From NCBI RefSeq assembly GCF_005543295.1, contig NZ_SRSG01000059.1, positions 1-64,000 of the forward strand: a stretch of 64,000 nucleotides of DNA. Direction: 5' to 3'. The notes under the pieces are model-generated. The model did no database searches. It saw only the letters and a program-made list of their open reading frames with translations, and was not told where the DNA came from. Made by a program: the position numbers and the translations under genes. The stretch comes from Halalkalirubrum salinum. GTDB lineage: Archaea > Halobacteriota > Halobacteria > Halobacteriales > Haloferacaceae. The stretch's first letter is position 1. Each line of letters begins with the position of its first letter. Positions 25,900-61,412 of this stretch are shown piece after piece.

Positions 25900-26292
25900 A
25901 TGGCATGTCCGAACTGTGGAGCCGACCAAATTTTGTTTGTGATTCCCGCAGATCTTCGGTCGATCGCCGACAGTGACGCCGCGGCGATCTGTCCGCACTG
26001 TCTGGCGGTCGATCCGCTCGAAGATTCAGCAGAAATCGGTGCGGACGCGGACTTTTCGGCGATCGAGGCGTCGTTTCCGGACGGAGAGCCGGGCGTTGCG
26101 ATCGCGTTGATCCTCGTGCGGCTCGATAGCCTCGCGCTTCACCGCCAGTCGGTCGTCGAACTGTTCGACTATGCGGAAGCAAATGGCGCAGACGTATTTT
26201 TGACGCTCGATCGGCTCATCGAATCAGACTCGGTTGAGCCGTGGTTCGATCTCGCGCGTCGGCGATCGCAGCTGGACGCGTGGGTGCAGTAG
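25900..26292 (+). CDS. Conserved haloarchaeal zinc-ribbon protein (DUF6276-like)
   Basis: A 130-residue protein with an N-terminal zinc-binding pattern, CPNCG at residues 3-7 and CPHC at about 31-34, and an acidic C-terminal helical part. It resembles a haloarchaeal family often found next to atpD, with no assigned function. The 21-bp gap from atpD on the same strand suggests co-transcription. The DUF number is recalled, not searched. Confidence 0.65.
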   Translation: MACPNCGADQILFVIPADLRSIADSDAAAICPHCLAVDPLEDSAEIGADADFSAIEASFPDGEPGVAIALILVRLDSLALHRQSVVELFDYAEANGADVFLTLDRLIESDSVEPWFDLARRRSQLDAWVQ

Positions 26293-26319
26293 TGCTTGCA
26301 GTCAAAAAACAAAATAGCG

Positions 26320-26526
26320 TTATCGTTCTATCGTGCGTCGATCACGACGCTCTTGTATTGCATCGCGAAGTGCATCTGCCTCGTCGTCACTCAAAATCCC
26401 TGCCAGTTCGAGTAGCGATCGCTCGGCAGTCAATCGGAGAATAACCGCAGAAAAGGTTTCATCAGGAGATCGACGAGCATCAAGACGTTCGTATGCTTCC
26501 TCAGATATCTCGATTCGTTTCGACAT
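26320..26526 (-). CDS. VapB-type antitoxin, orphaned by an IS insertion
   Basis: A 68-residue protein (SKRIEISEEAYERLDARRS) of the archaeal antitoxin family that pairs with PIN-domain VapC toxins (DUF217-like). It has a DNA-binding N-terminus and a charged C-terminal toxin-binding tail. No toxin gene follows. Its ATG (26524-26526) lies inside the left 8-bp target duplication of the IS, 5 bp from the element's end. Before insertion this ATG stood 8 bp after the prf1 stop, so the gene was probably co-transcribed with prf1. It may now be silent or driven from the IS. Confidence 0.7.
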   Translation of the reverse strand: MSKRIEISEEAYERLDARRSPDETFSAVILRLTAERSLLELAGILSDDEADALRDAIQERRDRRTIER

Positions 26527-26530
26527 GAGA
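26523..26530. repeat. Left target-site duplication ACATGAGA
   Basis: Identical to 28117-28124 on the other side of the mobile element. A perfect 8-bp duplication indicates a fairly recent insertion; 8 bp is the size known for the ISH1 subgroup of IS5. Confidence 0.88.
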
Positions 26531-26606
26531 GGCTCTGTTGAAGTCCTTCAGCGTTGACATTGAACAGAGCCAAAATTATATGTATTGACAGAATTCAACT
26601 TTCCAT

Positions 26607-27221
26607 ATGAATAAGAGAATCCCCGTGTCGGTATTTTTGGCTACTCTATTATATCAGTTTATTGATGCTGGTGCTGAACTGTTTTTACCGTTCTATGATC
26701 GGGGCGGAATAGTTGCACTACTTTTGTTCTGGTTGATCCCGGGAGGAACCGCGTTCATTCTTGGATATAGGGAGACTTGGCAACAGGCGATGGATAGTCA
26801 AAGACGCAAACAAGTGTATGTCTCAACCGTATTTGGCGCAGTTGCCGGTCAATTCTTGGGTCTCGTGGTGCTGCTTCCGACACCAGCCTTACCGGATATG
26901 ACGCTTATCGGGGCCATAATCTTGGCGGGGATTACTGGTATGTTTGTATTGATCGCAGTAGGTGCAGGGGTTATGCTCGTCTATGCTGCTAATGGGAATG
27001 ATGAATTCGTGACCTATCGTCAATCACTGATCTGTAGCGTACCATTCCTATTAATCGGATTCATATATCTGTTTATTACATTGAGTGATTTGTCCAGTCC
27101 CTATATCTCTGGAAATGATACGGTTATCTTCACTCTCGCAGGCATCTGGCTCCTGATATATGCACGAACCCTCAAACAAAACAATGATGATGGCAATGAA
27201 GGAAAACCTTCCACGGCCTAA
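26607..27221 (+). CDS. Passenger integral membrane protein within the IS
   Basis: A 204-residue protein with about six hydrophobic segments and a polar C-terminal tail (KQNNDDGNEG). No family was recognised. It is much less acidic than normal haloarchaeal membrane proteins, and AT-rich codon use (many ATA, TTA-type codons) differs from the surrounding genes. A TATA-like AATTATAT is centred about 29 bp before the ATG and lies just inside the IS left end, so the gene carries its own promoter. Lying between the inverted repeats, it should move with the element. It converges on the transposase gene with a 21-bp gap. Confidence 0.6.
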   Translation: MNKRIPVSVFLATLLYQFIDAGAELFLPFYDRGGIVALLLFWLIPGGTAFILGYRETWQQAMDSQRRKQVYVSTVFGAVAGQFLGLVVLLPTPALPDMTLIGAIILAGITGMFVLIAVGAGVMLVYAANGNDEFVTYRQSLICSVPFLLIGFIYLFITLSDLSSPYISGNDTVIFTLAGIWLLIYARTLKQNNDDGNEGKPSTA

Positions 27222-27242
27222 TTACTCCATCTATACTGGTTT

Positions 27243-28064
27243 TTAGAGAGTGCGGTCAAGATTGTGGACGATGCAGGCAAGAGCGAGTTCACGAAACTGC
27301 TTCCACCAGTGTCGTGAACGGACGAATGCACCGGATTTTCGCTTGATACGTGAGTTCACTGTCTCGCTCTGGCTCCGTTGACCGTAGAGTTCAGTATCCA
27401 ACCGGGCGTTCCACGCTTTCTGCAGTGATGAGAACTCACGGTGTTTGATCAAAGGACGAATCAAATTTTCACGGGCCATCTCCCGAATTTGCTGATCGTC
27501 ATATCCCTTGTCTCCAAGCAGAACTTCGACTTCAGATGCGTTGCGGTTGATGAGCGAAGGTGCGATCTGCGTATCGTGTTTACGGGTCGTTGTAATGTGG
27601 AGATCGAGGATAGCGTTTGCTCTGGTATCGACTAAGAGAGTGACCTTCAGCTGCTGAATCGTCAACTTCGCCCGTTTTGTGTAGTGCTTCGAGGCGTGGC
27701 TACGGTCAAAGCCCGAGGCGTCGATCCCCGCAACACCGTTAGTCGGGAGCAGTGAAACAGAGAGATTGAGAAGCACTCGCCAGACGGCCATATCAAGTCT
27801 GTCGAACGCCTTGCAGAGTGTAGACGGCGCAGGGAGTTCAGTAAGGTTGATTGCACTCCGTATGCGGGGCATCTCGATGAGTTCGTCGAGAAGTGTTCGA
27901 TAGGTCGTGTTCTTCCGAACTTTGAGACACAGGAGTACGATGTGCTGATGAAGCGTGTAGCGTTGTTTCGAGAATTTTGAGGAGTATCGTGAGACTGCTC
28001 GCTGGGCTAAATGAAATGCTTGCTCGACAAAGCGGAGTAACTGCGATTTCGGGAGGGTCTGCAT
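27243..28064 (-). CDS. IS5-family DDE transposase
   Basis: A 273-residue, apparently intact transposase. Catalytic residues appear as D115 (GIDASGFD), D185 (VLLGDKGYD) and E234 (SQSETVNSRIKRKSG), the IS5-type DDE pattern with the usual YREK-like C-terminal segment replaced by ETVNSRIKRK. It starts 35 bp inside the right terminal repeat. It contains no frameshift, so the element may be active. The target duplication size suggests the ISH1 subgroup. Confidence 0.9.
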   Translation of the reverse strand: MQTLPKSQLLRFVEQAFHLAQRAVSRYSSKFSKQRYTLHQHIVLLCLKVRKNTTYRTLLDELIEMPRIRSAINLTELPAPSTLCKAFDRLDMAVWRVLLNLSVSLLPTNGVAGIDASGFDRSHASKHYTKRAKLTIQQLKVTLLVDTRANAILDLHITTTRKHDTQIAPSLINRNASEVEVLLGDKGYDDQQIREMARENLIRPLIKHREFSSLQKAWNARLDTELYGQRSQSETVNSRIKRKSGAFVRSRHWWKQFRELALACIVHNLDRTL

Positions 28065-53386: not shown

Positions 53387-54478
53387 TTACTGACGATCGG
53401 CCGACACAATCCGGACAACTTCAGGGTCGAACGCGAGTGTCACTTGCCCGTCGATCGGATCGGTTGTCCGCACGAGGAGTTCGGTTTCGCCCCACGAGAC
53501 GTGAACTCGAGTCGTCTCACCGAGAAACTCGGAACTGACGACCGACCCAGTCAGTCGGTTCAGCGCTCTGCCCGACTTTTGACCGCGGCCATCTTCACCG
53601 GATGTCACCGACACGTATTCCGGACGGACACAGATCGTTACGGCATCGCCGCGTTCGATCGATCGATCCGCCGGAATCGCCGCGCGAATGGAAGCGCCTT
53701 CGATGTCGATCGTCGCCGTCTCACTATCCTGCTCAATCGCCGTCACGCGGCCGGAAAATACGTTGTTGTCACCGACGAACCGTGCGACGAACGGCGTGTC
53801 TGGTCGCCGATAGATCGCCTGTGGGGTCCCGATCTGTTCGATCGCACCCCCCGAAAGTACGGCGACGCGATCGGAGACAGACAGCGCCTCTTCTTGATCG
53901 TGCGTGACGTAGACAGTCGTGATTCCCAGTTCAGACTGAATGCGCTTGAGCTGGAGTCGAAGCGACTCCCGAAGCTGGGCGTCGAGCGCGCTCATCGGCT
54001 CGTCAAGCAACAGCACTCGCGGTCCCGGGGCGAGTGCTCGCGCGAGCGCAACTCGCTGTTGTTGCCCGCCGGATAGCGAGTCGGGCTCGCGATCGTCCAT
54101 TCCCGCCAGATCAACGAGCGCCAACAGCTCCTGAACTCGTTCGTCCGGCGACAGATCGCCCGGAGGATCTGTGAACTGGAGGCCGTAGCCGACGTTTTCG
54201 GCAACAGTCATGTGCGGAAACAGCGCGTAGTTCTGGAAGACGACGCCAACCCCGCGGTTCTCCGGCGGAACACCCGCAACGTCCTCGTCATCAAAGCGGA
54301 TCGCCCCGCTCGTCGGCGCCTCGAATCCGGCGATCAGCCGCAGCGTCGTCGTCTTCCCGCAGCCAGACGGGCCCACGAGCGTAAAGAACTCGCCGTCGGC
54401 GATCGACAACGTTGCGTCGGCGATTGCAGTTGTCTCTCCATACCGCTTTGACACGCCGTCGAGTTCGATCGTCGTCAT
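53387..54478 (-). CDS. ABC transporter ATPase, probable thiamine importer
   Basis: A 363-residue ABC ATPase. Walker A is GPSGCGKTTT, the signature LSGGQQQR, and Walker B VLLLDEPMSALDA. A C-terminal TOBE-type regulatory domain (about 250-363) resembles Pot/Fut/MalK-type importers. It powers import with the upstream permease and binding protein. I prefer ATG 54478 because GGAGG stands 9 nt upstream; two in-frame ATGs at 54508 and 54529 lie within tandem repeats and would add repeated MDCEIRR units. Confidence 0.88.
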   Translation of the reverse strand: MTTIELDGVSKRYGETTAIADATLSIADGEFFTLVGPSGCGKTTTLRLIAGFEAPTSGAIRFDDEDVAGVPPENRGVGVVFQNYALFPHMTVAENVGYGLQFTDPPGDLSPDERVQELLALVDLAGMDDREPDSLSGGQQQRVALARALAPGPRVLLLDEPMSALDAQLRESLRLQLKRIQSELGITTVYVTHDQEEALSVSDRVAVLSGGAIEQIGTPQAIYRRPDTPFVARFVGDNNVFSGRVTAIEQDSETATIDIEGASIRAAIPADRSIERGDAVTICVRPEYVSVTSGEDGRGQKSGRALNRLTGSVVSSEFLGETTRVHVSWGETELLVRTTDPIDGQVTLAFDPEVVRIVSADRQ

Positions 54479-54487
54479 CGATTGTGT

Positions 54488-54550
54488 CCTCCGTATCTCA
54501 CAGTCCATCCTCCGTATCTCACAGTCCATCCTCCGTATCTCACAGTCCAC
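54488..54550 (-). repeat. 21-bp tandem repeat at the permease-ATPase gene junction
   Basis: Three near-perfect 21-bp units at 54488-54508, 54509-54529 and 54530-54549. On the minus strand each carries a TGA that is in frame with the permease stop (54540-54542) and a GGAGG, and two carry an ATG in frame with the ATPase gene. Confidence 0.88.
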
Positions 54551-56402
54551 CACCTCGTTCTTCAACATCGCCGCCGAAGCGATCGACGACGACGAAACTC
54601 GCCGCCGTCACAACCAGTAAAACACATCCCATCGCAGTCGCCGGACCGAGCCGCCGACCGAGGTATCGTTCGATCGCGACTGGCATCGTGTACTCTCCTG
54701 AGCCGGTCGCGAGCACGATCGTCGAGTTGAACTCGCCGATGCTAATCGCGACGGCGAAGGCCGCCCCGGCAACGACGCCAGCCCGGACCAACGGGAGCTC
54801 AATGTCGAGGAGCGTTCTCGTGCGTGTCGCCCCGAGGCTCCGTGCAGACTCAATCATTGATCGATCGATCGCCGCAAGTCCGGGCGTCACGTTACGGGTA
54901 ACGAAGGGATACGCGCTTACGGCGTGGGCGGCGACGATCGCCAGCGAGCCGCCGACCGCGATCCGCCAGCCGGCGATCTCGACGCCAAACACCAGCCCGC
55001 GAAGCAGCCCCAGCCCGACGATGATCCCCGAAACCGCGAGCGGGGCCATCGCGATCGCGTCAACGAGCTTCCGACCGCGGTACCGCCGCGTGGTCACCAC
55101 CGAGACGACGACGCCCATCGGCACAGCGACCGCGAGGGTTCCAAGTGCAAACATGAGCGAGTTTCGAATCGCGCCAAGCGGGCGGACCTGAAAGCTCGCG
55201 CCCGTCGCCTGTCGTTCGAGTAAGAACGCGTAGTGTGCCAGCGTAAACGAGCCGTCGCTGGCGGTCACGCTCGCAAGAATCATGCTGACGATCGGGCTGA
55301 GGAAGACGAATGCCGCGATCACGGCGTAGCCGGCGATCGCGAGCCGAGTCATAGCTGCCTTTGGTGTCCACCGATCAGGCAGTAACGACCGTCGAGGCGG
55401 TGGGTGGACACCGCGGCGAGAGATCCGTTTGGCGTCCTCGTAGCGGAGGTACCCGTACAGCAACCCAAGAGAGATAACGAGCTCAATAATTGCAAGCGCC
55501 GCGGCTTCCGTGTAGTTGAGATTGATAAGCTGGCGGTAAATGAACACCTCAATCGTTGCCAGCCCGTAGCCGCCCAGCGCGAGGACGATCGGAAACGACG
55601 CGAAGGTGAAAATGAACGTCAGCGCCGATCCCATCAAAATCGCGGGCATGAGTTGGGGAACGACCACATCGAGTGTGGCTCGCAGCGGCGATGCGCCGAG
55701 ACTCCGGGCGGTTTCGATCGCTCGAGCGTCTACTGACTCCCAGGCGGCGGTCACGATCCGCGCGACGAGCGGCGCGTTATAGAACGCATGGGCGATCAAA
55801 ATCGCCTTGAGCGTGAACATGAGTTCGACGGGACCGAGCCCGATGATCGCGAGCGCGCTGTTGAGCGTGCCGTTCGCGCCGAAGGTTGCGACGAAGCCGA
55901 CTGCGACCATGATCGACGGTAGCACGAACGGCAAGATCGTCAGCGACCGCAGGGTTCGCCGGCCCGGAAACTCGAACCGCGCGAGCAGCCACGCCGCGGG
56001 CAGCCCGATCGCGACGCTGAGCACCGTCGAAAGCGCGGCCTGATAGGCCGTAAACGCGAAGATGTCGAGGTAGAACCGATCGGAGAGGATGTCAACAAAC
56101 GCCGAAAGCGTGGGCGATCCGTCGACGATCACCGCCTCGACAAAGACAGTCGAGACCGGATAAAAAAAGACCACAACCAGGAGGGCTGCGGTCACGATCG
56201 CACCCGCCTGGAGCGCGCGGGCTTCCGTCCCGCGGACGAGCCGGCCTCGGCGATCGTCAGACCGGCCTATGGAGCGAGAATCCTCGTCAGACCGGCCTGT
56301 GGAGCGAGAGGCCTCGTCCGGGGTATCCGCGTCGCTTACGGGGGTGTCAGCTCCCCCATCAGTTGCCGGCGAACTGTCGGTTCCAGGCGTCGACCCAGTC
56401 AC
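54540..56402 (-). CDS. ABC transporter permease, ThiP-like double-length protein
   Basis: A 620-residue protein with about 12 membrane segments, formed by two fused permease domains. EAA-type cytosolic loops appear as ARAIETARSLGASPLRATLDVV in the first half and RSMIESARSLGATRTRTLLDIEL in the second, as in ThiP/FbpB-type permeases. It opens with a 50-residue polar, acidic, repeat-bearing cytosolic segment that varies in haloarchaea; the start at 56402 overlaps the binding-protein gene end by 44 bp and could be later. Forms the thiamine-type importer with its neighbours. Confidence 0.85.
   Translation of the reverse strand: MTGSTPGTDSSPATDGGADTPVSDADTPDEASRSTGRSDEDSRSIGRSDDRRGRLVRGTEARALQAGAIVTAALLVVVFFYPVSTVFVEAVIVDGSPTLSAFVDILSDRFYLDIFAFTAYQAALSTVLSVAIGLPAAWLLARFEFPGRRTLRSLTILPFVLPSIMVAVGFVATFGANGTLNSALAIIGLGPVELMFTLKAILIAHAFYNAPLVARIVTAAWESVDARAIETARSLGASPLRATLDVVVPQLMPAILMGSALTFIFTFASFPIVLALGGYGLATIEVFIYRQLINLNYTEAAALAIIELVISLGLLYGYLRYEDAKRISRRGVHPPPRRSLLPDRWTPKAAMTRLAIAGYAVIAAFVFLSPIVSMILASVTASDGSFTLAHYAFLLERQATGASFQVRPLGAIRNSLMFALGTLAVAVPMGVVVSVVTTRRYRGRKLVDAIAMAPLAVSGIIVGLGLLRGLVFGVEIAGWRIAVGGSLAIVAAHAVSAYPFVTRNVTPGLAAIDRSMIESARSLGATRTRTLLDIELPLVRAGVVAGAAFAVAISIGEFNSTIVLATGSGEYTMPVAIERYLGRRLGPATAMGCVLLVVTAASFVVVDRFGGDVEERGGGL
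56254..56313 (-). repeat. Two 30-bp tandem units in the permease N-terminal coding region
   Basis: 56254-56283 and 56284-56313 are 30-bp copies with a few mismatches. They encode near-identical decapeptides of Asp/Ser/Arg/Gly near the permease start. Confidence 0.75.
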
Positions 56403-57528: not shown

Positions 57529-57741
57529 TACTGGATGATCACACCCAGTGGTACTTATGCCATCCGATCGGTGACCACACAGTCTTCAAGCAGCGATCGT
57601 CGGCGATCGGGTCAAAACGCCAAGTCGGGTTTTCGGGCGGAGCTGTCGGAGTCCTCTCGATCGTCGGTTCAACCCCGAAACTGTTGACTCACAGAGGTGT
57701 CTTCTTGGGCTCTGTAAACAAGCCTACTTTCTATTCAAAAA
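57529..57741. other. Intergenic region between thiamine transporter and eutB
   Basis: Upstream part of the 280-bp divergent gap, with no gene recognised. It holds the minus-strand transporter promoter (CATAAG TATA-like near 57555-57562) and AT-rich sequence leading into the eutB leader. Confidence 0.4.
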
Positions 57742-57808
57742 CTTTTCTTGAGTAAGAACCCACAAAATTTGAAGACTGTGGGCGAAGATTTCACACATTG
57801 AAGAAAAG
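57742..57808 (+). promoter_or_regulatory. Nested hairpin leader directly before eutB
   Basis: An outer 8-bp perfect stem CTTTTCTT (57742-57749) with AAGAAAAG (57801-57808) ends exactly at the eutB ATG. It encloses a 6-bp stem CCCACA (57759-57764) with TGTGGG (57777-57782). If transcribed, this leader could gate translation; a ligand is unknown. Confidence 0.35.
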
Positions 57809-59173
57809 ATGGTAATTACCTCTGCAATCGGTAGGGAACGCACAACATTCGACTCGGTGACAGAGGTACTCGCAAAAGCCAACGAGCGCAAGACTGGCGA
57901 CGAGCTTGCGGGTGTCGCTGCCCGATCGGATGCCGAACGCGTTGCCGCCAAAGACGCACTGAGCCAGCTCACACTTGAAACACTCCGGGAGAATCCAGTT
58001 GTTCCCTATGAAGATGACGAGGTAACCAGAGTGATCCAGGATGCCGTCCGCGAGCCGGTCTACGAGCGAATCCGCGACTGGACAGTCGGTGAACTCCGCG
58101 AGTTCCTCGTCGACAGCACCACGACCGACGAAGACATTAGCGCCATCCGACCGGGATTGACGAGCGAGATGATCGCGGCGGTCGCGAAACTAATGTCGGA
58201 TATGGATCTCGTCTTGGTTGCCTCGAAACTGACGGTGACCGCTCGCTGTAACAACACAATCGGCGAGCCCGGCCGGCTCTCGTTTCGCTTGCAACCGAAC
58301 GATCCGGGCGACGACATCGAGAACATCCTCGATTCGACTCGTGAGGGACTCGCCTACGGCGTTGGCGATGCGGTTATTGGCGTTAATCCAGTGACTGACA
58401 ACGTCGCAACGACGACCGAGATATTGGAAGCGACCCGCGGAATCATCGACGAATACGAGATTCCGACCCAGAACTGTTGTCTCTCGCACGTGACAACCCA
58501 GATGGATGCCATCCGTGAGGGGGCACCGGCGGACCTGATCTTTCAGAGCCTCGCGGGCACTGAAGCCGGCAACGACGAGTTCGGTGTCGACGTGGCGATG
58601 CTTGATGAGGCCTACGAACTCGGAACGCGCCGGTGCAGTTCTGCCGGTCCGAACGTTATGTACTTCGAGACCGGCCAGGGGTCTGAGCTCTCAGGGGACG
58701 CCCACCATGACGTCGACCAGGTAACGCTTGAAGCGCGGTGTTATGGCCTTGCCAAGCGGTACGATCCGTTCATCGTCAACACCGTTGTTGGCTTCATCGG
58801 CCCCGAATATCTCTACGACGGCAAGCAGGTAATCCGCGCTGGACTCGAAGATGTCTTCATGGGAAAGCTGCACGGCATTTCGATGGGCATCGACGCCTGC
58901 TACACCAACCACATTCAGGCCGATCAAAACGATATCGAGCGACTGGCGATGTTGCTCGCAAACGCCGCGAACTACTTTATTACAGTTCCGATGGGCGACG
59001 ATGTGATGCTCAACTACCAATCCAACAGCTACCACGACGCCGCCTCACTCTGGGAGTTACACGACCTTCGGCCGGCGGCTGCCTTCGAAGAGTGGCTCGA
59101 AGAGATGGGCATCATGCACGAGGGGCGACTCACGGAGAAGGCGGGCGATCCAACGCTATTCGCTGGAGGCTAA
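57809..59173 (+). CDS. eutB: Ethanolamine ammonia-lyase large subunit
   Basis: A 454-residue EutB, near the 453 residues of the E. coli enzyme. Segments shared with it by eye include SHVTTQMDAIREGAPADLIF, MYFETGQGSELS and NTVVGFIGPEYLYDGKQVIR. With EutC and adenosylcobalamin it converts ethanolamine to acetaldehyde and ammonia. It is the first gene of eutBCA, with 4 bp before eutC. Haloarchaeal eutBC genes are uncommon to my knowledge, but composition is not obviously foreign. Confidence 0.93.
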   Translation: MVITSAIGRERTTFDSVTEVLAKANERKTGDELAGVAARSDAERVAAKDALSQLTLETLRENPVVPYEDDEVTRVIQDAVREPVYERIRDWTVGELREFLVDSTTTDEDISAIRPGLTSEMIAAVAKLMSDMDLVLVASKLTVTARCNNTIGEPGRLSFRLQPNDPGDDIENILDSTREGLAYGVGDAVIGVNPVTDNVATTTEILEATRGIIDEYEIPTQNCCLSHVTTQMDAIREGAPADLIFQSLAGTEAGNDEFGVDVAMLDEAYELGTRRCSSAGPNVMYFETGQGSELSGDAHHDVDQVTLEARCYGLAKRYDPFIVNTVVGFIGPEYLYDGKQVIRAGLEDVFMGKLHGISMGIDACYTNHIQADQNDIERLAMLLANAANYFITVPMGDDVMLNYQSNSYHDAASLWELHDLRPAAAFEEWLEEMGIMHEGRLTEKAGDPTLFAGG

Positions 59174-59177
59174 CCCA

Positions 59178-59927
59178 ATGACAACCACCAATCCACCGGA
59201 CGACCACGACGACCGTCTCGATCGCATTGCCGACCGCAACCCCTCTCGGCTTGGCGTGGGGCGGGCAGGGTCACGACCGCGAACCCAGACGCTTCTCGAA
59301 TTCCGATCAGACCACGGGATCGCTCGGGATGCAGTCCAGAGCCACGTCAGCGACGCACTCGTCGAGGAGATGGGGCTCTTTGCCATCCAGACACTCGTCG
59401 AAGACAAAGATGCGTATCTCGCCCGACCCGATAAGGGCCGAGAGATTGCCGCGGAGACTGCCGAGTTGCTTCGCGAGGAATGCCAACAATCACCGCAGGT
59501 TCAGTTGATCGTCGCTGACGGGCTGAGTTCGACGGCGATCGAGAAGAACATTCCCGATCTCCTGCCGATTCTCCTCGATGGACTCGACCAGCGCGGACTC
59601 GACGTCGGGACGCCGATTTTCGTGACCTACGGCCGGGTTGACGTCATGGATGCAATCGGCGAGGAGCTCGACGCCGAGTCCTGTCTGGTCCTGATCGGCG
59701 AGCGGCCCGGATTGGCAACTGCCGAAAGTCTGAGTGCCTACATGGTCTACGGCCCCGAACGCGGGACGCCGACAGCGAAAAAAACGGTGATTTCCAATAT
59801 CCATGCTGGTGGGCTGCCACCGGTCGAAGCCGGCGCTGAAATTGTCGATCTGATTGCCGAGATGTGTGACAAACAGGCCAGCGGCCTCGATCTTACTGCC
59901 GCAGACCGTGAGTTCGCGAAGGGATAA
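59178..59927 (+). CDS. eutC: Ethanolamine ammonia-lyase small subunit
   Basis: A 249-residue EutC, shorter than the E. coli protein (about 295), mostly at the N-terminus. SRLGVGRAGSRPRTQTLLEF, RADGLSS-like VADGLSSTAIEKN and LIGERPGLATAESLSAYM are recognisable. Together these contribute to the cobalamin-binding interface. Lacking the E. coli N-terminal extension matters little here, because no microcompartment genes are present for it to target. It is 27 bp upstream of eutA. Confidence 0.92.
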   Translation: MTTTNPPDDHDDRLDRIADRNPSRLGVGRAGSRPRTQTLLEFRSDHGIARDAVQSHVSDALVEEMGLFAIQTLVEDKDAYLARPDKGREIAAETAELLREECQQSPQVQLIVADGLSSTAIEKNIPDLLPILLDGLDQRGLDVGTPIFVTYGRVDVMDAIGEELDAESCLVLIGERPGLATAESLSAYMVYGPERGTPTAKKTVISNIHAGGLPPVEAGAEIVDLIAEMCDKQASGLDLTAADREFAKG

Positions 59928-59954
59928 AGCTGCGGACACCGAAGCGCCGTAGCA

Positions 59955-61412
59955 ATGGTGTTCAACCCGCCCACGGATGCTGGGACACTCACAAGCGTCG
60001 GGATCGACGTTGGGACCACAACGACCCATGTCGTCGTCAGCGAGTTGGCGGTCGAATCCGCTGGCGCTTCCGGATCGGAGAAGCTCGCGATCGGCGATCG
60101 GACAGTTCGCTTTCGCGGCCCAGTTCACGAAACGCCACTTATTGACCCAGAAACCGTGGACATCGACGCGGTGGCCGAACTCATCGCGTCTGACCTCAAG
60201 ACCGCTGGCGTGGCACCTGAGGCAATCGATACAGGTGCAGTTATCGTGACTGGTGAGACGGCCCGTACCGCGAACGCCGAGCCGCTGGCGTACCAACTCG
60301 CCGACGAGAGCGGGAGCTTCGTCGTTGCCACCGCCGGCGCAGCGCTTGAGGCAATCCTGGCTGGGCAGGGGGCTGGATCGGCCGCCTATGCAGCCGACTC
60401 GGGAACAACAGTCGCGAACGTGGATATCGGCGGTGGCACGACCAACACCGCCATTTTTGACGCCGACGGCGTGGTCGAAACCCGATGTCTCGACGTTGGT
60501 GGACGACTTGTCGGCGTTGCCGACGGAAAAGTCACAAAACTGGCCGATCCAGCCTGCACGGTTAGTGAGGCCCACGGCCTCGGTCTTGCAGTCGGCGACC
60601 CGGTCGATCGAGAGACCCTATCTGCGCTTGCAACGGCGATGGCTGGCCTCGTGATCGACTCGCTGCTCGGACCGCCGTACGACCCACTCACACGGCAGCT
60701 ATCGATCGGCTCGCTCCCAGACGAGCCACAGGCGATCGATTCGATCGTCTTTACTGGCGGGGTCGGCCGACTGATTGGTGAGTATACTGCGGCTGCCGAG
60801 GACGATCCGTTCGCCTACAACGATCTCGGGCCATTGCTTGCTGGGGCACTCTCCGACGCGGCCGCTGACACAGGGATGACAGTAACACGGCTCTCGGAGG
60901 ATTTGCGTGCAACTGTCATCGGTGCGGGAACGCACACAACACAGCTCAGCGGTCGAACCGTCTTCATCGACCTCGATCTGTTACCGCTTCGGAATCTTCC
61001 TGTGGTCTCAGCTGGCTCGCTGGCCGACATTGATGACAGCGATCTCACGGCGGCGTTTTCGACGGTGCTCTCGCAGGCGACCCAGCGGTATGACGTTCGA
61101 GATGTCGGCGGCGTTGCAATTGCGATCGACGACGTGGGTGATCTCTCGTACGATCGGCTTCGGGCGGTTGCAGCGTCGTTTGCAGCGGCACTGCAGGACG
61201 GCTATTCCGCATCGGTTCCGATTGTCGTCGTTACTGAGCAGAACTGCGCGAAGGCGCTTGGCCAATTGCTGCGTGCTCGCTGTGCAGACTGGCCACTCAC
61301 AGTGATCGACGAACTCGCCGTTAGCACGGGTTCGTATCTCGATATTGGCGAGCCAATTGCGCACGGTGAGACGGTTCCGGCAGTCGTAAAGACGCTGGTG
61401 TTTGGGTCATAA
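59955..61412 (+). CDS. eutA: Ethanolamine ammonia-lyase reactivase EutA
   Basis: A 485-residue actin-like ATPase. VGIDVGTTTTHVVVSEL at about 15-31 is the phosphate-1 loop, and NVDIGGGTTNTAIFD is the phosphate-2 loop. It removes damaged cobalamin from EutBC so the lyase can be recharged. It completes the eutBCA unit and supports authentic, adenosylcobalamin-dependent activity. Confidence 0.92.
   Translation: MVFNPPTDAGTLTSVGIDVGTTTTHVVVSELAVESAGASGSEKLAIGDRTVRFRGPVHETPLIDPETVDIDAVAELIASDLKTAGVAPEAIDTGAVIVTGETARTANAEPLAYQLADESGSFVVATAGAALEAILAGQGAGSAAYAADSGTTVANVDIGGGTTNTAIFDADGVVETRCLDVGGRLVGVADGKVTKLADPACTVSEAHGLGLAVGDPVDRETLSALATAMAGLVIDSLLGPPYDPLTRQLSIGSLPDEPQAIDSIVFTGGVGRLIGEYTAAAEDDPFAYNDLGPLLAGALSDAAADTGMTVTRLSEDLRATVIGAGTHTTQLSGRTVFIDLDLLPLRNLPVVSAGSLADIDDSDLTAAFSTVLSQATQRYDVRDVGGVAIAIDDVGDLSYDRLRAVAASFAAALQDGYSASVPIVVVTEQNCAKALGQLLRARCADWPLTVIDELAVSTGSYLDIGEPIAHGETVPAVVKTLVFGS

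What the first reader, a model, noticed from the sequence alone, without database searches (positions are those of the whole stretch)
57809..61412. eutBCA in a haloarchaeon without microcompartment genes
A full adenosylcobalamin-dependent ethanolamine ammonia-lyase plus reactivase is present, but no shell proteins, EutE, EutD or EutH are seen. Free acetaldehyde would have to be handled in the cytosol. Ethanolamine could come from phosphatidylethanolamine of bacteria or algae in brines.
Basis: partly seen in the sequence, partly recalled or inferred. Interest (0 to 1): 0.55.

Follow-up and report, generated by a model that had tools for sequence, protein, structure and literature searches.

The report
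Haloarchaeal ethanolamine ammonia-lyase without microcompartment
A salt-loving archaeon carries an intact set of genes (enzyme plus repair factor) for splitting ethanolamine with vitamin B12, most like bacterial versions that work inside protein shells, but no shell genes were found, and some relatives pair the same genes with what may be an ethanolamine uptake system.

Summary
In detail: eutB (57809-59173), eutC (59178-59927) and eutA (59955-61412) are intact and under purifying selection; 17 of 18 inspected EutB positions equal E. coli's. 40 of 391 haloarchaeal genomes carry eutB (19 of 86 genera); none of the 40 matches the BMC shell family or EutH, all 40 have a cobalamin adenosyltransferase. 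Haloarchaeal EutB is one clade on the side of BMC-type (mostly Firmicutes) EutB, apart from the BMC-free eutBC-eat type; whether it nests inside the BMC type or is its sister is not settled. An EutC N-terminal helix pattern found in 57 of 57 bacterial relatives is absent in 61 of 61 haloarchaeal EutCs. So this is most likely a cytosolic lyase. BMC-free EutBC is already known in bacteria; the archaeal EutBCA form is a variant. The neighbouring ABC transporter looks like a thiamine system. An aldehyde:ferredoxin oxidoreductase beside eut in 13 of 40 genomes is positional: the site exists without eut. A more telling link: in 6 eutB+ genomes eutBCA sits beside a transporter, an HTH_10 regulator and a glutamine-synthetase-like amine ligase; in 11 eutB-less genomes that ligase stands with dehydrogenases and (10 of 11) a hydrolase, fitting a gamma-glutamylethanolamide-to-glycine route, though a polyamine route is not excluded. 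No function was tested.

The parts
57809..59173 (+). eutB, ethanolamine ammonia-lyase large subunit (454 aa)
   Evidence: PF06751 685.6 bits; PDB 2qez and 3abo relatives, E 2.6e-176 and 3.6e-170; of 18 positions read, 16 equal E. coli in 62 of 62 haloarchaeal rows, the window differs only at 392
59178..59927 (+). eutC, ethanolamine ammonia-lyase small subunit (249 aa), without the N-terminal helix pattern of BMC-type EutC
   Evidence: PF05985 270.2 bits; PDB 3any E 2.4e-65; helix pattern 57 of 57 bacterial, 0 of 61 haloarchaeal
59955..61412 (+). eutA, reactivating factor of ethanolamine ammonia-lyase (485 aa)
   Evidence: PF06277 456.4 bits; best NCBIfam EutA model 384 bits, under its cut-off of 598
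57529..57808 (.). divergent intergenic region (280 bases) between the thiB-like gene and eutB; probable promoter region (inferred)
   Evidence: Rfam scan of the whole window 0 matches; the stretch next to eutB is largely shared with the genus relative L120
56359..57528 (-). neighbour, not part of the system: thiamine-type substrate-binding protein, first gene of a divergent ABC transporter (permease 54540-56402 -, ATPase 53387-54568 -)
   Evidence: TIGR01254 134.6 bits over cut-off 93.4; closest solved structure thiamine-binding protein 2qry; relative in 102 of 129 family genomes; beside eut in 2 of 62 loci, the window and its genus relative

Best explanation
The three genes make a working adenosylcobalamin-dependent ethanolamine ammonia-lyase (EutBC) and its reactivase (EutA) that operate free in the cytosol of a haloarchaeon. 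EutBC splits ethanolamine into ammonia and acetaldehyde; EutA exchanges damaged cofactor; the genome's cobalamin adenosyltransferase supplies AdoCbl. Ammonia feeds nitrogen assimilation; acetaldehyde is oxidised by ordinary aldehyde dehydrogenases or aldehyde:ferredoxin oxidoreductases encoded elsewhere. The set most likely entered haloarchaea once, from a donor related to the BMC-type eut operons, and spread patchily by lateral transfer and loss. Shown: gene integrity, selection, residues, absence of PF00936 and EutH, one haloarchaeal EutB clade on the BMC-type side, EutC without helix pattern. Inferred: activity, substrate, acetaldehyde fate, direction of transfer, whether a compartment was lost or never there.
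For: Family matches and solved relatives. EutB positions R160, Q162, N193, E287, D362 and 11 others identical to E. coli in 62 of 62 rows, 49 of them distinct (which are catalytic is recalled). dN/dS 0.045-0.26. eutB in 40 of 391 genomes of the class, one copy each, six families; PF00936 in none of these 40, 1 of 391 overall and that one marginal and eutB-less; EutH 0 of 40; cobalamin adenosyltransferase 40 of 40. Haloarchaeal EutB one clade (SH-aLRT 100; 100/100), parted with BMC-type EutB from the BMC-free type by a 100/100 branch. 54 of 58 bacterial relatives have a shell-protein hit in the fetched locus, 0 of 62 haloarchaeal loci do (queries EutK, EutL, EutM, EutN of E. coli). EutC helix pattern 57 of 57 against 0 of 61. 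Discrete module: two genomes of one genus differ by a clean 3.9 kb eutBCA stretch.
Against: No activity, growth or expression data. No ethanolamine transporter identified in this genome. The aldehyde-handling enzyme is unidentified; none lies beside eut here. EutA scores under the NCBIfam cut-offs. The place of haloarchaea relative to BMC-type EutB is unsettled: in one tree E. coli alone stands outside the pair haloarchaea + Firmicutes type (80/78), without E. coli four BMC rows fall on the haloarchaeal side, and a single BMC clade is not rejected (p-AU 0.21 and 0.58). The helix pattern was written after seeing the bacterial sequences; an earlier pattern and motif gave 16 of 17 and 0 of 59.
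Confidence: 0.68

Rival explanations
1. The enzyme serves mainly nitrogen scavenging at low flux, as reported for Acinetobacter baumannii at native expression, so acetaldehyde never builds up and no dedicated aldehyde enzyme or transporter is needed.
For: No linked aldehyde enzyme or ethanolamine transporter at the window locus. Acinetobacter precedent: sole nitrogen source without compartment or an identified EutA (PMC9426561, abstract and passages). A Ugp-type transporter with a glycerophosphodiesterase lies elsewhere in the genome (L177).
Against: A UgpB relative (E <= 1e-60) is not enriched with eutB: 8 of 40 eutB+ against 118 of 351 eutB-. In some relatives eutBCA sits in a larger catabolic neighbourhood.
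Confidence: 0.45
2. Haloarchaeal EutBCA works with aldehyde:ferredoxin oxidoreductase (AOR), which oxidises acetaldehyde to acetate and reduces ferredoxin, replacing EutE.
For: An AOR gene lies within 5 kb of eutB in 13 of 40 genomes of two families; 38 of 40 eutB+ genomes have an AOR.
Against: The AOR-thiolase site exists without eutBCA: of 16 eut-less AOR sites that I picked from the best matches (two of them in genomes with eutB elsewhere), 13 keep the same small protein and thiolase; a match to that AOR at E <= 1e-150, paralogues included, is in 73 of 91 genomes of that family; same-genus empty site. In the window genome the AOR, acyl-CoA ligase and thiolase site is on another contig without eut (L178).
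Confidence: 0.15
3. The transporter-ligase module seen in relatives handles polyamines such as putrescine, not ethanolamine, so its link to eutBCA says nothing about ethanolamine.
For: Its permease is closest to PotB, under cut-off; its GS-like protein scores 305-336 bits with gamma-glutamylputrescine synthetase, under the cut-off of 650; a haloarchaeal GS paralogue, GlnA-2 of Haloferax mediterranei, is a glutamate-putrescine ligase (PMC8394153, abstract start and passages).
Against: In 11 of 11 eutB-less loci the partner is an iron-type alcohol dehydrogenase, which a hydroxyl substrate needs and putrescine does not; glycine cleavage genes follow in 3 of 11; 6 of 17 carriers have eutBCA beside it.
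Confidence: 0.35
4. Haloarchaeal EutBCA comes from a lineage that never had a compartment; the shell and EutC helix arose later in bacteria.
For: Five BMC-free bacterial EutCs also lack the helix pattern; a BMC clade excluding haloarchaea is not rejected (p-AU 0.21 with E. coli, 0.58 without).
Against: BMC-type EutB is one clade without the haloarchaea in only 2% and 1% of 200 bootstrap trees; no EutA is annotated beside the BMC-free eutBC in five regions read, whose gene tables may be incomplete.
Confidence: 0.3
5. The lyase acts on another short amino alcohol, such as 2-aminopropanol, rather than ethanolamine.
For: Sequence cannot separate these substrates; bacterial EutBC is known to turn over 2-aminopropanol (recalled).
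Against: Of 18 positions read in EutB, 16 equal E. coli in 62 of 62 rows.
Confidence: 0.1

Closest known systems
Eut BMC operon of Firmicutes and Enterobacteria (EutBC, EutA, shell proteins, EutH, EutE, EutG, EutD)
   Same: EutB, EutC and EutA are the same families; haloarchaeal EutB lies on the side of this type, bacterial hits at 59-65% identity
   Different: no PF00936 shell gene, no EutH, no EutC helix pattern; no EutE, EutG, EutH, EutJ or EutD hit above 60 bits in the haloarchaeal loci except one weak EutG hit in L143
BMC-free eutBC of Acinetobacter, other Proteobacteria and Actinobacteria, often with the eat permease (PMC9426561, PMC6529630, passages seen)
   Same: EutBC without compartment; EutC without N-terminal helix pattern (5 of 5)
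   Different: different EutB clade; haloarchaea keep EutA; no eat-like permease beside eut in the window locus
Gamma-glutamylethanolamide route of Streptomyces coelicolor (GlnA4) and Phaeobacter sp. MED193 (PMC6529630, PMC10132767, passages seen)
   Same: 11 eutB-less haloarchaeal loci have a GS-like ligase, Fe-alcohol dehydrogenase and aldehyde dehydrogenase, 10 of 11 a hydrolase and ABC transporter
   Different: M81/MlrC-family hydrolase in place of the amidohydrolase proposed there; Pot-like ABC transporter in place of a TRAP transporter or permease; HTH_10 regulator; not present at the window locus
Glutamate-putrescine ligase GlnA-2 of Haloferax mediterranei (PMC8394153, abstract start and passages seen)
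   Same: a haloarchaeal GS paralogue that ligates an amine
   Different: not compared by sequence here; no link to eut is described in the passages seen

Membership tests
Ethanolamine ammonia-lyase EutBC | EutB and EutC profiles over curated cut-off, side by side | tested here: met
Ethanolamine ammonia-lyase EutBC | substrate contacts of EutB (R160, Q162, N193, E287, D362; roles recalled) | tested here: met
   identical in 62 of 62 rows
Ethanolamine ammonia-lyase EutBC | AdoCbl-dependent release of NH3 and acetaldehyde | not testable with these tools
   only the adenosyltransferase gene is shown, 40 of 40
EutA reactivase | EutA profile beside eutBC | tested here: met
   Pfam 456 bits, cut-off 27; below the NCBIfam equivalog cut-offs
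Eut bacterial microcompartment | BMC-domain shell proteins | tested here: not met
   PF00936 0 in own genome, 0 of 40 eutB+ genomes; PF03319 not searched genome-wide, E. coli EutN gave no hit in 62 loci
Eut bacterial microcompartment | N-terminal targeting helix on EutC | tested here: not met
   pattern in 0 of 61 haloarchaeal, 57 of 57 bacterial EutCs
Eut bacterial microcompartment | EutH permease | tested here: not met
   0 of 40
Eut bacterial microcompartment | EutE acylating acetaldehyde dehydrogenase | tested here: inconclusive
   4 of 5 Aldedh proteins scanned, no EutE model among the 25 shown of 40-44 each
Eut bacterial microcompartment | EutD phosphotransacetylase | not tested
   no genome-wide search; no hit above 60 bits in 62 loci
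BMC-free eutBC-eat type | eat permease beside eutBC | tested here: not met
   neighbours are thiamine-type ABC and AI-2E-family genes; a genome-wide search for eat was not made
BMC-free eutBC-eat type | EutB in the same clade | tested here: not met
   6 non-BMC rows form their own clade, 100
Gamma-glutamylethanolamide pathway (other haloarchaea, not the window) | GS paralogue that is not a plain glutamine synthetase | tested here: met
   Y179 to S and E327 to W in 11 of 11 aligned rows, from 6 eut-linked rows (two of one genome) and 5 of the 11 eutB-less loci (roles recalled)
Gamma-glutamylethanolamide pathway (other haloarchaea, not the window) | activity on ethanolamine | not testable with these tools
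   -

The most novel reading that the evidence does not exclude
Haloarchaea use two exchangeable catabolic modules behind one ethanolamine uptake and control module (Pot-like ABC transporter, HTH_10 regulator, gamma-glutamyl ligase): either a cytosolic EutBCA related to compartment-type bacterial enzymes but without the targeting helix, or a gamma-glutamylethanolamide to glycine route feeding the glycine cleavage system. This would be archaeal ethanolamine catabolism in two forms, and a natural case of a compartment-type lyase with its reactivase working without a compartment.
Probability: 0.4. Interest if true: 0.65.

Novelty: new variant of a known kind. Interest (0 to 1): 0.45.

Why it matters
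If EutBCA works free in haloarchaea, it shows that a compartment-type lyase with its reactivase can be run without a shell, and its EutC offers a natural helix-less form to compare with encapsulated ones. It extends the AdoCbl-dependent lyase to archaea, where a 2009 survey of 47 archaeal genomes (5 of Halobacteriales) found none (PMC2667541, passage seen). The linked transporter-ligase module in relatives gives direct, testable candidates for ethanolamine uptake and a second route in brines, where phosphatidylethanolamine from bacteria and algae could be a nitrogen source.

Tried and rejected
1) The divergent ABC transporter as an ethanolamine carrier: rejected as most likely. It matches thiamine-type families, its nearest solved relative is a thiamine-binding protein, and a relative at E <= 1e-40 is in 102 of 129 family genomes; in eight other eutB+ genomes whose coordinates I compared (G054, G056, G082, G100, G122, G258, G261, G379) it lies on another contig or over 200 kb from eutB. 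2) AOR as the partner for acetaldehyde: looked strong at first (13 of 40), then the empty sites showed it to be positional. 3) Glycerophosphoethanolamine import by Ugp plus GDPD as the source: a candidate locus exists in the own genome (the Ugp matches are under the NCBIfam cut-offs, GDPD is over Pfam's), but UgpB is not enriched with eutB (8 of 40 against 118 of 351, Fisher p 0.11). 4) A riboswitch or other known RNA near eut: none in the window. 5) tRNA-linked insertion: no tRNA in the window. 6) Early gene calling by longest ORF was dominated by antisense frames and was redone with a codon-usage score trained on the eut genes; the neighbour clusters rest on the second version. 7) First EutC motif searches missed many rows; the counts given are. 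8) My first reading of the reduced tree, that haloarchaea branch inside BMC-type EutB, did not hold: the drawn topology showed that only the long E. coli row stood outside. 9) Literature: seven searches of the held open-access library listed no paper whose title or abstract start concerns EutBC in haloarchaea; lists were cut (20 of 30; 15 of 53; 15 of 21). Papers opened, passages only: PMC12542753, PMC10132767, PMC6529630, PMC2667541, PMC5821096, PMC9426561, PMC8394153, PMC13256939. Subscription journals are not held.
Full report
What is there. They match Pfam EutB, EutC and EutA over nearly the whole profiles at 685.6, 270.2 and 456.4 bits; NCBIfam confirms EutB and EutC over its cut-offs, while EutA matches four EutA models below their cut-offs. 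The nearest solved relatives are ethanolamine ammonia-lyase heavy chains 2qez and 3abo and the light chain 3any. Between the window and five relatives dN/dS is 0.045-0.13 for eutB, 0.06-0.21 for eutC and 0.13-0.26 for eutA; dS is high (over 1) in several pairs. GC3 of the three genes (0.64-0.70) is at or below the low end of the local genes (10-90% range 0.69-0.78, n=35), a weak hint of foreign origin.

Catalytic parts. Against E. coli EutB I read 18 positions in 62 haloarchaeal rows: 16 equal E. coli in all 62; position 257 is E in 49, S in 9 and G in 4; position 392 is I in all where E. coli has M. The window differs only at 392. That R160, Q162, N193, E287 and D362 are substrate contacts is recalled.

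Distribution. In 391 genomes of the class, 40 carry eutB, one copy each, in 19 of 86 genera and six families. The shell family PF00936 is absent from the window's genome and from the 40 eutB+ genomes; 1 of 391 has a marginal partial match (G097, 25.6 bits, cut-off 24.5) and is not among the eutB carriers. EutH is absent from 40 of 40. A cobalamin adenosyltransferase (PF01923) is present in 40 of 40. Of the 60 rows shown out of 149 plasmid records with a match, two are haloarchaeal, Natronorubrum aibiense and Haladaptatus pallidirubidus, both annotated as EutB-EutC-EutA.

Origin. With K-12 EutK, EutL, EutM and EutN as queries, 54 of the 58 bacterial loci have at least one shell hit; the four without are L078, L091, L097 (contigs of 3.6 to 7.4 kb) and L110 (14.5 kb); none of 62 haloarchaeal loci has one. 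In a tree of 113 EutBs the 49 haloarchaeal rows form one clade (SH-aLRT 100), apart from six BMC-free bacterial EutBs. Careful trees of 55 and 54 rows agree (100/100). How the haloarchaea attach to the BMC type is not settled: with E. coli included, haloarchaea and the other BMC rows are sisters and only E. coli stands outside them (80/78); without E. coli, four BMC rows fall on the haloarchaeal side (96/89), yet a tree with BMC rows held together is as good (p-AU 0.58; 0.21 with E. coli). I take one transfer from a donor related to the BMC-type operon as most likely; whether that donor had a compartment is open. Inside haloarchaea, families are mixed on the tree, which points to later lateral spread.

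EutC N terminus. Each of 57 bacterial EutCs that could be read carries an amphipathic helix pattern upstream of the conserved domain (one further locus had no eutC), E. coli too; none of 61 haloarchaeal EutCs does when the longest open frame is searched (one could not be read), nor do five BMC-free bacterial EutCs. The pattern was written after seeing the bacterial sequences; an earlier one gave 16 of 17 and 0 of 59. That the N terminus of Salmonella EutC carries the compartment signal, and that Acinetobacter EutC lacks it, is stated in PMC9426561 (passages).

Neighbours at the window. Upstream and divergent is an ABC transporter whose binding protein belongs to the thiamine subfamily and is closest to a thiamine-binding protein. 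It has relatives in 102 of 129 family genomes and stands beside eut in 2 of 62 loci, the window and its genus relative G075. Downstream are an AI-2E-family membrane protein and a SpoIIM-domain protein. None of these suggests ethanolamine metabolism.

A false lead worth recording. AOR lies within 5 kb of eutB in 13 of 40 genomes (11 of family f4, 2 of f9). But AOR of this kind, paralogues included, is in 73 of 91 f4 genomes at E <= 1e-150, and of 16 AOR sites without eutBCA that I picked from the best matches (two in genomes with eutB elsewhere), 13 still have the same small protein (a membrane protein by eye) and thiolase beside it. G262 (with eut) and G032 (without), of one genus, are collinear at 80-94% except that 3.9 kb with eutBCA in the first is 0.34 kb in the second. 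So eutBCA is a discrete block, and the AOR is simply the address.

A better link, in relatives. The presumed binding protein is weakly supported: no Pfam match in L145, an SBP match under cut-off in L169; it is so named from its place and lipoprotein-like start. The permease matches PotB under cut-off. The GS-like orthologue (52% identity or more, next listed 41%) occurs in 17 of 391 genomes; 6 of them have eutB, and in all 6 the two genes are within 8 kb. Counted over genomes this is 6 of 40 against 11 of 351 (Fisher p 0.004; related genomes are not independent). Against E. coli GlnA, 11 aligned rows keep the metal-binding residues and R321, R339, R344 and R359, but have S for Y179, W for E327, A for G265, D or A for N264, and vary at D50 (roles recalled). 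So it is more likely an amine ligase than a glutamine synthetase.

In the 11 eutB-less genomes the ligase and regulator (11 of 11) and the four transporter parts (10 of 11) stand with an aldehyde dehydrogenase (11 of 11), an iron-type alcohol dehydrogenase (11 of 11), an M81/MlrC-family hydrolase (10 of 11) and, in 3 of 11 within the stretch fetched, glycine cleavage T and H proteins (families named from L169, the others by similarity to it). Read in order these would turn ethanolamine into gamma-glutamylethanolamide, then the aldehyde, then gamma-glutamylglycine, then glutamate and glycine: the route proposed for Streptomyces coelicolor (PMC6529630) and seen by proteomics in Phaeobacter (PMC10132767) (passages). 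None of the eutB-linked loci has these dehydrogenases or the hydrolase in the stretch fetched, at the identity limits used (45%; 35% for the hydrolase). The boldest simple reading is one uptake and control module with two exchangeable catabolic modules. Against it: the transporter and ligase also resemble polyamine systems, and GlnA-2 of Haloferax mediterranei is a glutamate-putrescine ligase (PMC8394153). The window's own locus lacks this module, and its genome's best match to the ligase (E 1.2e-68; identity not listed) is in the range of the other paralogues.

How it most likely works here. EutBC with AdoCbl makes ammonia and acetaldehyde in the cytosol; EutA rescues inactivated enzyme. The genome offers four strong aldehyde dehydrogenase genes, one resembling betaine-aldehyde and ExaC types under their cut-offs, beside an iron alcohol dehydrogenase and a Ugp-GDPD locus, and three AORs; which one takes acetaldehyde is unknown. 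Entry of ethanolamine is unexplained for this genome.

Known or new. BMC-free EutBC is established in bacteria (PMC9426561). Archaeal EAL was reported absent from 47 genomes in 2009 (PMC2667541, passage). Seven searches of the held library listed no paper on haloarchaeal EutBC. I rate it a new variant of a known kind.

Noticed in passing
L166-L176 (11 eutB-less haloarchaeal genomes), e.g. L169 769-13072: Conserved cluster of Pot-like ABC transporter, HTH_10 regulator, GS-like ligase, aldehyde dehydrogenase, M81/MlrC-family hydrolase, Fe-alcohol dehydrogenase and in 3 of 11 glycine cleavage genes: a candidate gamma-glutamylethanolamide to glycine route in archaea.
   Followed up: partly
L044, L051, L052, L118, L123, L140, L145, L047: The eutB-linked loci keep the GS-like amine ligase next to EutBCA, so the substrate would have two fates in one locus; why both are kept is unexplained.
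   Followed up: no
L129 7819-11747 against L191 11190-11531: Clean empty site: eutBCA present or absent as one 3.9 kb block between an AOR gene and a small protein in two genomes of one genus.
   Followed up: yes
L040, L042, L043: In these three Halorubrum loci eutA is inverted relative to eutBC, so it is likely transcribed separately.
   Followed up: no
L177 69-8108 (own genome contig C3): Ugp-like ABC transporter, glycerophosphodiester phosphodiesterase, GbsB-like iron alcohol dehydrogenase and betaine-aldehyde-like dehydrogenase side by side: possible glycerophosphocholine or -ethanolamine use.
   Followed up: partly
window 27243-28064: 273-aa ORF that looks like an IS5-type transposase (by eye, no family search) in the window's lowest-GC 2 kb block (GC 0.50 at 26001-28000).
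   Followed up: no
G097 contig C11 89663-89821 (L151): Single marginal BMC-domain match (25.6 bits, partial) in a eutB-less haloarchaeal genome; probably chance.
   Followed up: no
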